45,014 nucleotides of DNA from an uncultured bacterium (GTDB taxonomy: Bacteria; Bacillota; Clostridia; Oscillospirales; Oscillospiraceae). Below, in pieces: positions 19,228-21,472 of the stretch; position 1 is the stretch's first letter; every line of letters starts with the position of its first letter. The notes beneath the pieces were generated by a model, which was given only the letters and a program-made list of their open reading frames with translations, was not told the DNA's origin and made no database searches. Both the position numbers and the translations under genes were made by a program. The stretch is from contig CAOKLO010000028.1 in the NCBI GenBank assembly GCA_948469375.1, positions 1-45,014 on the forward strand, in the 5' to 3' direction.

Positions 19228-19725
19228 ATGGCATTGCCATTGAATATTAGCCCGCAGCAGATTTTGCTGCACTGGATGAACCTGGCCATTCTGACCGGAG
19301 GGCTTTACTTCCTCCTGTTTGAGCCGGTAAAGAAATTTATAGAAAAGCGAGAGGCCCACTACCGCGACTTGGACCAGCAGGCCACGGACAAGCTTGCCCA
19401 GGCGGAGCAGCTCAAGGCCGACTGCCAGGCCAAGCTGGACCAGGCGGACGAGGTCATCCGTCAGGAGCGGGTCAAGGCCCAGCAGGCCTCCACCCAGGCC
19501 GTTCAGGAGCAGCTGAACCAGGCGGAGGAGCAGGCCCGCCACATCGTCGCCAAGGCCAAGGCCGAAGCGGAACAGCACAAGGAACGAGCCATCCGGGAGT
19601 CCCAGAAGGAGCTGAGGGAGCTGGCCGCCAAGGCCGCCAAGAAACTGGCCGCCAAGCCTGGGAACGACTTCTACGATCAATTCCTGGAGCTGGCGGAAAG
19701 GAGCGCAGAGCATGAGGGCCGCTAG
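19228..19725 (+). CDS. atpF: F-type ATP synthase subunit b
   Basis: Subunit b is the peripheral stalk of the motor. The 165-residue protein has a single N-terminal membrane helix (about 12-30, ending LLFEPVKKFIEKR, a hallmark of b) and then a long charged coiled coil rich in Ala, Gln, Glu and Lys to the C-terminus. RBS is AGGGAGG. The stop at 19725 overlaps the next gene by 14 bases; where a delta gene normally follows, the alpha gene begins instead. The C-terminal end, which in known enzymes contacts the delta C-terminal domain, would here contact the delta-like domain fused to alpha. Confidence 0.94.
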   Translation: MALPLNISPQQILLHWMNLAILTGGLYFLLFEPVKKFIEKREAHYRDLDQQATDKLAQAEQLKADCQAKLDQADEVIRQERVKAQQASTQAVQEQLNQAEEQARHIVAKAKAEAEQHKERAIRESQKELRELAAKAAKKLAAKPGNDFYDQFLELAERSAEHEGR

Positions 19726-21472
19726 AAGTCAGCTGACCGCCCATCTGCGCAGCACGGACCAGCCCACCGAGGTGCAGCTCCAGCGCTTCAACCAATTTCT
19801 TACCCGCACCTATCAGAAAAAAATCCCCCTTCACTGGGAGTATGACGAGTCCTTTCAGGACGGCTTCCGCCTCCAGGTGGGGTCCGACGTCTATGACTGG
19901 ACGCTGGACGGCCGGGTGCGGCAGTTTCAGGATTATCTGCGTCGGATCCATCCTGGGCACAACGACATCCTGCCCCTCATGCGTCAGGCCGTGGAGGAAT
20001 GGGAGCCCTTCCCCGCCCCTGAGGAAATCGGCGAGGTGCTCACCGTGGACAACGACATCGCCACGGTGAGCGGGCTGGCCCACGCCCAATATGGAGAGAT
20101 TCTGGTATTCTCCGGCGGTGTAAAGGGTATGGTGCAGGACCTGCGTCCTGACGGCCTGAGCTGCATCCTGTTCGGCGGCGGAGAGGAGATCTGCGCGGGC
20201 AGCATGGTCCGCCGCACCCTGAAAACCGCCGGTATGCCCGTGGGTGAGGCTTATCTGGGCCGCGTGGTAGACGCCCTGGGCCTGCCTGTGGACGGCAGGG
20301 GCTCCATTGAGCCGGAAAGCTACCGCCCCATGGAAACCCCCGCTCCCGGCATTCTGGACCGCCAGCCGGTGAATACCCCCATGGAAACGGGACTTCTGGC
20401 CATTGACTCCATGTTCCCCATCGGCCGGGGACAGCGGGAACTCATCATCGGCGACCGTCAGACCGGCAAAACCGCCATTGCGCTGGATACCATCCTCAAT
20501 CAGAAGGGCAAGGACGTGGTGTGCATTTACGTGGCCATCGGGCAGAAAACCAGCTCGGTGGCCCAGCTGGCGGAAAACCTGGCCCGCCGGGGGGCTATGG
20601 AGTACACCACCATTGTCACCGCCCCCGCCGGGGCCTCCGCCGCCCTGCAGTATATCGCCCCCTACGCCGGGTGCGCCCTGGGGGAGTATTTCATGTACCA
20701 GGGCAAGGACGTGCTCATCGTGTACGACGATCTGTCTAAGCACGCCATCGCCTACCGGGCTCTGTCCCTCCTGCTGGAGCGCTCCCCGGGCCGCGAGGCC
20801 TTCCCCGGCGATGTGTTCTACCTCCACTCCCGGCTGCTGGAGCGGTCCGCCCACCTCAGCGACGAGCTGGGGGGCGGCAGCATGACCGCCCTGCCCATCG
20901 TGGAGACCCAGGCAGGAGACGTGTCCGCCTATATCCCCACCAACATCATCTCCATCACCGACGGCCAGATTTTCCTGGAGGGCGACCTGTTCTTCTCCGG
21001 CCAGCGCCCCGCTGTCAACGTGGGTCTGTCCGTGTCCCGAGTGGGCGGCGACGCCCAGACCAAGGCCATGAAATCCGCCGCCGGAGCCATCCGGCTGGAG
21101 CTGGCCCAATACCGGGAGATGGAGGTGTTTACCCAGTTCTCCAGCGACTTGGACGACGCCACCAAGCGCCAGCTGGCCTATGGACAAGGGCTGATGCGCC
21201 TGCTGCGCCAGCCCCAGTACGCTCCCCTGGCCCAGCACCAGCAGGCCATCGTGCTGGTGTCCGCCATGGATCACGTCATGCAGGATGTGCCGCTGGGCAA
21301 AATGGACCAGTTCCGCAGCGGCCTGCTGCGCGCACTGGAGGAAGCCGCGCCGGACCTGTGCGCCCGCATCGACCAGACCGGCAGACTGTCCCCGGAGGAC
21401 CGGGAGGAGATTTTGGAGCTGGCCCACGACTACCTGAACCAGTTCCAGGGCAGCAGAAAGCAGGGCAGCTGA
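19712..21472 (+). CDS. atpA: ATP synthase subunit alpha with N-terminal fused delta C-terminal domain
   Basis: From about residue 84 this is a normal alpha subunit: ILPLMRQAVEEW matches the N-terminal helix, GDRQTGKT (247-254) is the Walker A loop (about 78 residues later than in E. coli alpha), and VSRVGGDAQ contains the catalytic arginine finger. The 586-residue length exceeds the usual 500-513 by the same amount. Residues about 14-80 match the C-terminal domain of subunit delta: Asp45-x-Ser47, Gly51, Gly57, then VYD at 60-62 and GR at 67-68, following the delta pattern D-x-S-x3-G...G-D-x-V-x-D. The N-terminal domain of delta is absent, and no separate delta gene exists in the operon. The frame is continuous from an ATG overlapping atpF, and no ribosome site is visible before Met90, so plain alpha is not obviously made from an internal start. 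Confidence 0.93.
   Translation: MRAARSQLTAHLRSTDQPTEVQLQRFNQFLTRTYQKKIPLHWEYDESFQDGFRLQVGSDVYDWTLDGRVRQFQDYLRRIHPGHNDILPLMRQAVEEWEPFPAPEEIGEVLTVDNDIATVSGLAHAQYGEILVFSGGVKGMVQDLRPDGLSCILFGGGEEICAGSMVRRTLKTAGMPVGEAYLGRVVDALGLPVDGRGSIEPESYRPMETPAPGILDRQPVNTPMETGLLAIDSMFPIGRGQRELIIGDRQTGKTAIALDTILNQKGKDVVCIYVAIGQKTSSVAQLAENLARRGAMEYTTIVTAPAGASAALQYIAPYAGCALGEYFMYQGKDVLIVYDDLSKHAIAYRALSLLLERSPGREAFPGDVFYLHSRLLERSAHLSDELGGGSMTALPIVETQAGDVSAYIPTNIISITDGQIFLEGDLFFSGQRPAVNVGLSVSRVGGDAQTKAMKSAAGAIRLELAQYREMEVFTQFSSDLDDATKRQLAYGQGLMRLLRQPQYAPLAQHQQAIVLVSAMDHVMQDVPLGKMDQFRSGLLRALEEAAPDLCARIDQTGRLSPEDREEILELAHDYLNQFQGSRKQGS

What the first reader, a model, noticed from the sequence alone, without database searches (positions are those of the whole stretch)
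19712..21472. Delta-alpha fusion in the F-type ATP synthase, with no separate delta gene
The operon runs a, c, b, alpha, gamma, beta, epsilon, and alpha begins 14 bases inside the end of b, leaving no room for delta. The alpha ORF carries about 80 extra N-terminal residues that follow the pattern of the delta C-terminal domain (Asp45-x-Ser47-x3-Gly51, Gly57, VYD 60-62, GR 67-68), the domain that binds the b stalk in E. coli. The delta N-terminal domain, which normally caps the alpha N-terminus, is missing: a covalent link replaces its function. Known delta fusions (for example b-delta in mycobacteria) join other partners. Because three alpha subunits exist per enzyme, up to three delta-like domains per stalk are predicted, which breaks the usual 1:3 stoichiometry.
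Basis: partly seen in the sequence, partly recalled or inferred. Interest (0 to 1): 0.88.

Follow-up and report, generated by a model that had tools for sequence, protein, structure and literature searches.

The report
ATP synthase with delta-alpha fused subunit
This gut bacterium's ATP synthase gene joins the stalk-binding half of the delta subunit to the alpha subunit, a natural counterpart of a laboratory design that let the enzyme carry up to three stalks, so it may make ATP at unusually low membrane energy.

Summary
The window holds an F-type ATP synthase operon a-c-b-alpha-gamma-beta-epsilon. Alpha (19712-21472, 586 aa) starts 14 bases inside b and carries about 80 extra N-terminal residues. 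They match only the C-terminal half of the delta/OSCP family (residues 1-85: E 3.5e-9, 37.4 bits, cut-off 22.3). No other delta gene and no second F-type alpha was found in the genome (91.6% complete). All 80 named relatives fetched carry the fusion (they were picked by a motif in it). Near relatives show the extension under the same constraint as the core.

The architecture is not unknown. Ueno et al. [quoted passage not shown] They noted natural fusions in Acidaminococcus fermentans and two UniProt entries. The PDB chain closest to the natural extension is their engineered one.

Most likely each alpha carries its own b-docking domain, so more than one stalk is possible; the number in the cell is untested. 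New here: the spread across families, repeated origins, and b'-deltaC-alpha triple fusions.

The parts
17987..18817 (+). atpB, subunit a (276 aa)
   Evidence: PF00119 E 2.4e-19, 70.5 bits, cut-off 33.9
18851..19207 (+). atpE, subunit c (118 aa) with about 50-residue N-terminal extension that looks like a signal segment
   Evidence: PF00137 E 2.5e-16 at residues 52-114; the signal-like reading is by eye
19228..19725 (+). atpF, subunit b (165 aa), the only b gene of the operon
   Evidence: PF00430 E 3.7e-13, 50.2 bits, cut-off 28
19712..21472 (+). delta-C/alpha fusion (586 aa)
19712..19966 (+). delta C-terminal domain, residues 1 to about 76, plus linker to residue 85
   Evidence: PF00213 residues 2-76 = profile 97-172/172, E 3.5e-9; best PDB match of the family profile is engineered chain 9jc1_I, then delta, b-delta and OSCP chains
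19961..21472 (+). alpha core incl. its N-terminal helix region
   Evidence: TIGR00962 residues 84-574, 696.4 bits
21474..22379 (+). atpG, gamma (301 aa)
   Evidence: TIGR01146 256.1 bits over cut-off 194.45
22376..23779 (+). atpD, beta (467 aa)
   Evidence: TIGR01039 774.9 bits over cut-off 462.85
23779..24192 (+). atpC, epsilon (137 aa)
   Evidence: TIGR01216 96.3 bits over cut-off 67.25

Best explanation
The operon encodes a natural delta-N-less delta-alpha ATP synthase. [quoted passage not shown] the delta N-terminal domain, which in ordinary enzymes sits on the threefold axis and contacts the alphas, is gone; no other delta and no other F-type alpha was found in the genome as held. INFERRED: every enzyme carries three delta-C domains, one per alpha. 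Each can dock a b dimer as in the engineered Bacillus PS3 enzyme. With the symmetry-breaking delta-N gone, F1 can hold more than one b2 stalk, and with each stalk an a subunit. That raises ions per ATP and lets an Rnf-bearing anaerobe make ATP at low ion-motive force. My step-wise estimates: architecture 0.97; delta-C docks b 0.85; more than one stalk in a sizeable share of cellular enzymes 0.45.
For: Significant delta-C match and no delta-N. Only one credible PF00213 gene and one F-type alpha in the genome. 18 same-genus genomes incl. this one have the fusion and none of them a second PF00213 match at E 0.01; 5 have an ordinary delta instead. Conserved start and motif in relatives. Median dN/dS of the extension 0.27 against 0.25 for the alpha core, 16 sequences (15 of the genus, 1 of the family). 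The PDB chain nearest to the profile of 42 natural extensions is the engineered fusion 9jc1_I, profile 9-109 to chain 5-109, across the junction, gaps of 4 residues in all (9JC1 is the deposit of Ueno et al.). The engineered enzyme has up to 3 stalks, H+/ATP 5.8 against 3.0 and about half the threshold pmf. Fused against unfused needs at least 7 changes on the alpha tree, so the state recurs. Delta-N is diverged in the 5 full delta-alpha fusions: 25-45 bits against 63-126 in 34 standalone deltas (the model was built from standalone deltas, which favours them). Sister lineages fuse a whole b' to delta-C-alpha, 4 of the 5 checked with a single alpha gene, which fixes three b' anchors per enzyme if the product stays intact. 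RnfC over cut-off in the genome.
Against: No protein, structure or expression data. In cryo-EM the engineered enzyme had 0/1/2/3 stalks in 15/51/26/8% of particles, so a single-stalk state is stable; the authors blame sample preparation. The operon has one a and one b gene and nothing read here shows raised a or b supply. Genome is 91.6% complete with 6.24% contamination. Five genomes keep delta-C as a separate mini gene, so fusion is not the only outcome once delta-N is lost. The delta models of NCBIfam match residues 1-85 (best E 1.8e-8) but below their whole-protein cut-offs. An in-frame GTG after GAGG exists at V109 in the window. No model of the complex could be made (structure machine busy).
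Confidence: 0.6

Rival explanations
1. Single-stalk fusion: delta-C on alpha docks the b dimer, but only one b2a stalk assembles per enzyme, through limited a/b supply or membrane crowding. Two delta-C domains stay idle; the ion/ATP ratio is ordinary and the fusion only simplifies assembly.
For: In cryo-EM of the engineered enzyme 51% of particles had one stalk and 15% none. One a and one b gene in the operon, as in ordinary operons.
Against: SDS-PAGE and equilibrium measurements of the engineered enzyme indicate about two stalks and H+/ATP 5.8. Triple b'-deltaC-alpha fusions in sister lineages would place three b' anchors.
Confidence: 0.34
2. The extension is removed: alpha is cleaved or initiated near residue 84 or later, so some or all alphas are ordinary.
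For: M90 (ATG) lies at the junction, and an in-frame GTG at V109 follows a GAGG. 22 of 56 fusion alpha rows have some internal start with an SD-like 4-mer or longer; in three (L051, L071, L099) one lies at the junction.
Against: M90 has no SD-like sequence. The V109-type site recurs in the genus and in L045, L055 and L068, but it and most of the 22 lie 16-24 residues inside the core match, so a start there would cut off alpha's own N-terminal helix; the GAGG comes from Glu codons (inference). 45 of 56 rows have an SD-like start before delta-C (lenient 4-mers; two rows are partial copies of the window). The extension evolves under constraint like the core.
Confidence: 0.04
3. A complete delta is encoded in the missing part of the genome and the extension is a side feature.
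For: Genome 91.6% complete.
Against: None of the 18 same-genus fusion genomes has a second PF00213 match at E 0.01. Fusion and ordinary delta were never found together in the genus.
Confidence: 0.02

Closest known systems
Engineered delta-deltaN-alpha fused FoF1 of Bacillus PS3 (Ueno et al. 2025, PMC12229609; PDB 9JC1)
   Same: Delta residues 2-104 removed, delta C-terminal domain fused by a short linker to alpha, no separate delta; profile of the natural extension aligns across the junction with gaps of 4 residues in all
   Different: Natural; c subunit with N-terminal extension; epsilon keeps its C-terminal domain (PF00401) where the engineered enzyme lacks it; stalk number and ion/ATP ratio unmeasured
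Acidaminococcus fermentans ATP synthase and UniProt G4Q3K6, A0A1I2C5T3 (named in Ueno et al. 2025, Discussion)
   Same: A. fermentans is described there as a delta-alpha gene fusion without delta-N; the two entries as showing similar features
   Different: Sequences not compared here; the paper names only these three in the sections I read, without a survey
Mycobacterial b-delta fusion (PDB 7jg5_d 'b-delta'; b/delta 'Rosetta Stone' in PMC5709465 passages)
   Same: Delta-C covalently joined to another stator part
   Different: Partner is b; b is a separate gene here
N-ATPase (Dibrova et al. 2010, not held; known to me through PMC5706428 passages)
   Same: No delta gene; its long b subunit model TIGR03321 has a weak match to the extension in its C-terminal part (E 0.054)
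   Different: Alpha below the N-ATPase model cut-off (608.6 against 750.5 bits), other gene order, alpha is the carrier here

Membership tests
delta/OSCP (PF00213) | Match over curated cut-off | tested here: met
   37.4 bits for residues 1-85, 32.2 for whole protein, cut-off 22.3
delta/OSCP (PF00213) | N-terminal domain of delta | tested here: not met
   Profile matched only from position 97; so a delta C-domain, not a delta subunit
delta/OSCP (PF00213) | Binding of the b dimer | not testable with these tools
   Needs structure or binding assay
F-type alpha (TIGR00962) | Match over equivalog cut-off | tested here: met
   696.4 bits, cut-off 484.45
delta-deltaN-alpha fused FoF1 (Ueno 2025) | Delta-C fused to alpha N-terminus, delta-N absent | tested here: met
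delta-deltaN-alpha fused FoF1 (Ueno 2025) | No separate delta | tested here: met
   in a 91.6% complete genome
delta-deltaN-alpha fused FoF1 (Ueno 2025) | All alphas fused (single alpha gene) | tested here: met
   One TIGR00962 match over cut-off in own genome, same caveat on completeness
delta-deltaN-alpha fused FoF1 (Ueno 2025) | More than one stalk and a subunit, raised H+/ATP | not testable with these tools
   Needs purified enzyme
N-ATPase | Alpha over TIGR03324 cut-off | tested here: not met
   608.6 against 750.5 bits
b-delta fusion of mycobacteria | b and delta in one chain | tested here: not met
   b is a separate 165-aa ORF

The most novel reading that the evidence does not exclude
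Many anaerobic gut bacteria of this class run natural multi-stalk F-type ATP synthases with up to three b2a stators and therefore two to three times the usual ions per ATP. Loss of delta-N and linkage of delta-C to alpha evolved several times for this. In one line the b'-deltaC-alpha triple fusion makes three stalks obligatory.
Probability: 0.4. Interest if true: 0.92.

Novelty: new member of a known kind. Interest (0 to 1): 0.7.

Why it matters
One a subunit and one peripheral stalk per F-type ATP synthase is treated as a rule. A design made in 2025 broke it in the laboratory, and its authors suggested that nature may have done so too. This finding supplies a large natural family with named strains (for example Flintibacter muris DSM 110149 and Faecalibacterium gallinarum JCM 17207) in which the rule can be tested directly, and sister lineages whose gene fusions would force three membrane anchors. 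If true, ions per ATP would be set by stator number as well as by c-ring size, which bears on how anaerobes live on small ion gradients.

Tried and rejected
N-ATPase membership: rejected on TIGR03324 score and gene order. atpH elsewhere: the only other PF00213 hit is E 0.31 beside flagellar-looking ORFs. Internal start at the junction: found in 3 of 56 rows, not conserved. Overlap as evidence of stalk number: b overlaps alpha by 14 bases in 45 of 80 named loci, but this does not tell b:alpha supply. A first regex count of the residue after the delta Y-D motif mis-assigned standalone rows; it was redone on an alignment. Literature: the ten searches pointed to one paper on natural delta-alpha fusions, PMC12229609. 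I opened only that one and passages of PMC5709465 and PMC5706428; the other listed papers were seen as listings. PMC5709465 mentions a delta-less transcription unit in Clostridia without explaining it. The library lacks most subscription papers and preprints, so this is no proof of absence. Structure prediction and fold search could not be run.

Full report
WHAT IS THERE. The window carries an F-type ATP synthase operon in the order a (17987-18817), c (18851-19207), b (19228-19725), alpha (19712-21472), gamma (21474-22379), beta (22376-23779), epsilon (23779-24192). Alpha begins 14 bases before the end of b. It is 586 aa long; the alpha equivalog model begins at residue 84. The first 85 residues alone match the delta/OSCP family at E 3.5e-9, 37.4 bits, profile positions 97-172 of 172, that is, the C-terminal half only. 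NCBIfam delta models agree (best E 1.8e-8) but stay below their cut-offs, which are set for whole deltas.

NO OTHER DELTA FOUND. A PF00213 search of the whole genome (143 contigs, 91.6% complete, 6.24% contamination) returned the fusion and one hit at E 0.31 inside a 303-aa ORF next to FliI-like and FliG-like ORFs (flagellar names by eye). One F-type alpha passes the TIGR00962 cut-off. The other nucleotide-binding hits are, besides this operon's beta, one ATPase in the flagellar-looking stretch and two pairs of V/A-type size (named by length and grouping, not by a family search). So, unless something lies in the missing part, all three alphas of the enzyme carry delta-C.

THE FUSION IS REAL AND KEPT. 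80 named loci were fetched with a profile of the extension (110 matched, the best 80 were kept). All 80 have the delta-C domain in the alpha frame. 62 of 80 show all seven genes in the order a-c-b-(deltaC-alpha)-gamma-beta-epsilon; the other 18 lack genes at an end, many on short contigs, and in L171 alpha is split between two frames. The loci were chosen by a motif in the extension, so this shows consistency, not frequency. They include Flintibacter muris DSM 110149, Colidextribacter sp. OB.20, Acutalibacter sp. 1XD8-36, Anaeromassilibacillus senegalensis An867, Faecalibacterium sp. An122 and F. gallinarum JCM 17207. The b/alpha overlap is 14 bases in 45 of the 80. M1, P18, Q22, R25, Y34, W42, G51, F52, G57, V60, Y61, D62, W63 and L89 are invariant in the 42 extensions aligned, the window's and 41 of the 80. 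Among 16 sequences, 15 of the genus and L068 of another genus of the family (120 pairs), median dN/dS is 0.27 for the extension and 0.25 for the alpha core.

START. Of 56 fusion alpha rows, 45 have an SD-like start before delta-C (4-mers were allowed, so this is lenient; rows L001 and L005 are partial copies of the window). 49 have some internal start codon and 22 one with an SD-like sequence. In three (L051, L071, L099) such a site lies at the junction; most of the others lie 16-24 residues inside the core match. The window has one there, GTG at V109 after GAGG, and it recurs in the genus and in L045, L055 and L068. I take it for a by-product of Glu codons, which is inference; a protein start there would lack alpha's own N-terminal helix.

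HOW COMMON. Among 149 relatives, 76 have a PF00213 match at E 0.01. In 39 of the 149 it lies in a frame of 430 aa or more (38 over the cut-off), the length of an alpha fusion (my count of the rows). Of 42 same-genus genomes, 18 have the fusion (this one included), 5 an ordinary delta and 19 no match; none has both. In 393 genomes drawn from the class, at least 37 from 15 families show a fusion by open frame without a stop (my count of the rows printed; the list was cut, so a lower bound; G217 is cut by its contig end, and several, such as G171, G300 and G334, also have a second, ordinary alpha). A sample of 199 genomes of the phylum shows a few more outside the class by frame only (not examined further).

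A RANGE OF ARCHITECTURES. From the DNA: delta-C-alpha as in the window; full delta-alpha (L037, L038, L088, L090, L095); two delta-C in tandem before alpha (L039); a separate mini delta of 74-78 aa with only delta-C (L044, L046, L050, L052, L054); a second b whose C-terminus looks like delta-C (PF00213 E 0.005, below cut-off) together with delta-C-alpha (L040); and b'-deltaC-alpha triple fusions in frames of 737-815 aa (736-747 aa from the likely ATG) with a hydrophobic start, a b-type match, delta-C and alpha, beside a separate b (L041, L042, L043, L048, L099). Aligned triple fusions keep the order. A search of 295 genomes of the order finds the triple fusion in 10, none with a stop inside; G045 and G521 are further cases. 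G045, G108, G109 and G146 have a single F-type alpha; G521 has two. One alpha, L101, has neither a detectable delta-C nor a delta in its locus.

HISTORY. On a quick tree of 103 alpha cores (SH-aLRT only, 32 of 100 inner branches under 80, midpoint root for drawing), the window lies in a set of 46 rows that is all delta-C-alpha but for one tandem and one delta-less row (99). This sits in a set of 58 (98) that holds all five full delta-alpha rows and two ordinary ones. That fits fusion first and loss of delta-N later, though the two ordinary rows need a reversal or transfer. The triple fusions with L040 form a separate set (99), the mini deltas with three delta-C-alpha rows another (94, not starred), and L096 falls among ordinary rows (95). 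Fused against unfused needs at least 7 changes, delta-N present against absent 7; the counts do not tell gains from losses. In full fusions delta-N scores 25-45 bits against 63-126 in 34 standalone deltas, while delta-C scores alike (the delta-N model was built from standalone deltas, which favours them).

THE KEY COMPARISON. Ueno et al. 2025 (PMC12229609; outline, passages and sections 4, 10 and 13 read) removed delta residues 2-104 of Bacillus PS3 and fused the rest to alpha, arguing that delta-N on the threefold axis limits the enzyme to one stalk. The product had up to three stalks and a subunits, H+/ATP 5.8 +/- 0.4 against 3.0 +/- 0.2, and an equilibrium pmf of 68 against 133 mV at one condition; cryo-EM particles had 0/1/2/3 stalks in 15/51/26/8%. 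The Discussion names A. fermentans and two UniProt entries as natural cases and suggests multi-stalk enzymes in nature. Against the PDB, the profile of 42 natural extensions finds 13 sequences: the engineered fusion, eleven named delta, b-delta or OSCP, and one named 'multifunctional fusion protein' that matches at the same place as the b-delta chains. The best is the engineered chain 9jc1_I, aligned from delta-C through the linker into alpha (9-109 to 5-109) with gaps of four residues in all. With the whole window alpha, among the 60 of 71 chains shown, that chain is the only one whose match starts well inside the extension (residue 35; the rest start at 77 or later).

MECHANISM. Shown: the gene architecture. 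Inferred: each alpha brings its own b-docking domain; with delta-N gone the crown keeps its threefold symmetry; up to three b2a stators may bind. The genome has RnfC, so an Rnf-bearing fermenter with a small ion gradient would profit from more ions per ATP. The c subunit has the E-T and Y of sodium-type rings but M where the sodium-type glutamine is expected (by eye from recalled motifs; sequence), so the ion is open. The main rival is the same docking with only one stalk. A triple fusion with one alpha gene is the strongest natural hint of three stators, since b' anchors would come three per enzyme unless the chain is cut.

WHAT COULD NOT BE DONE. No expression or protein data were available. 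Many of the named records are metagenome bins; the recurrence of most architectures in several genomes argues against assembly error, though the tandem (L039), the b'-deltaC plus deltaC-alpha set (L040) and the delta-less alpha (L101) rest on one genome each.

VERDICT. For the window this is a new member of a kind described briefly in 2025. The breadth, repeated origin and triple fusions did not turn up in print in the ten searches made, which cover an open-access library only.

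Noticed in passing
L093 5064-7454, L094 5291-7696, L186 889-3126 (frame runs to the end of the locus), G732:C71 about 8651-9361; perhaps L047 1042-2988 (run of N inside): Gamma and beta lie in one open frame without a stop in 4 of 31 genomes of one order searched (10 of 31 matched the query). In L093, L094 and L186 the beta part keeps its own ATG with an AAGGAA-like sequence just before it; L093 and L094 also carry deltaC-alpha. 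Rotor and stator would be joined, with free beta possibly made by internal initiation. G732 was read from the search row only.
   Followed up: partly
L041, L042, L043, L048, L099 and the 10 genomes: b'-deltaC-alpha triple fusions: a whole b-type stalk subunit, delta-C and alpha in one chain, beside a separate b; would fix three b' anchors per enzyme where alpha is single-copy.
   Followed up: partly
L044, L046, L050, L052, L054: Separate mini delta genes of 74-78 aa made of delta-C only.
   Followed up: partly
L039 5023-7065: Two delta-C domains in tandem in front of alpha, so up to six per enzyme.
   Followed up: no
L101 1962-3587: Alpha with about 40 extra residues but no detectable delta-C and no delta in the locus.
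   Followed up: no
window 19898-19900 (W63 of alpha): On an alignment a tryptophan follows the delta Y-D motif in 46 of 57 fused delta-C, 1 of 34 standalone deltas and 0 of 5 mini deltas; a mark of the main fusion clade, perhaps packing on alpha.
   Followed up: partly
window 18851-19000: Subunit c has an N-terminal extension of about 50 residues that looks like a signal segment by eye; c frames of many relatives with the fusion are similarly long.
   Followed up: no
G000 C1 about 11.7-13.9 kb and C112 about 0.5-2.9 kb: Two further rotary ATPase-type gene pairs (V/A type by size) in the same genome; one may be contamination, as the bin is 6% contaminated.
   Followed up: no
window 26749-30144: 1131-aa protein with 20 Sel1 repeats.
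   Followed up: no
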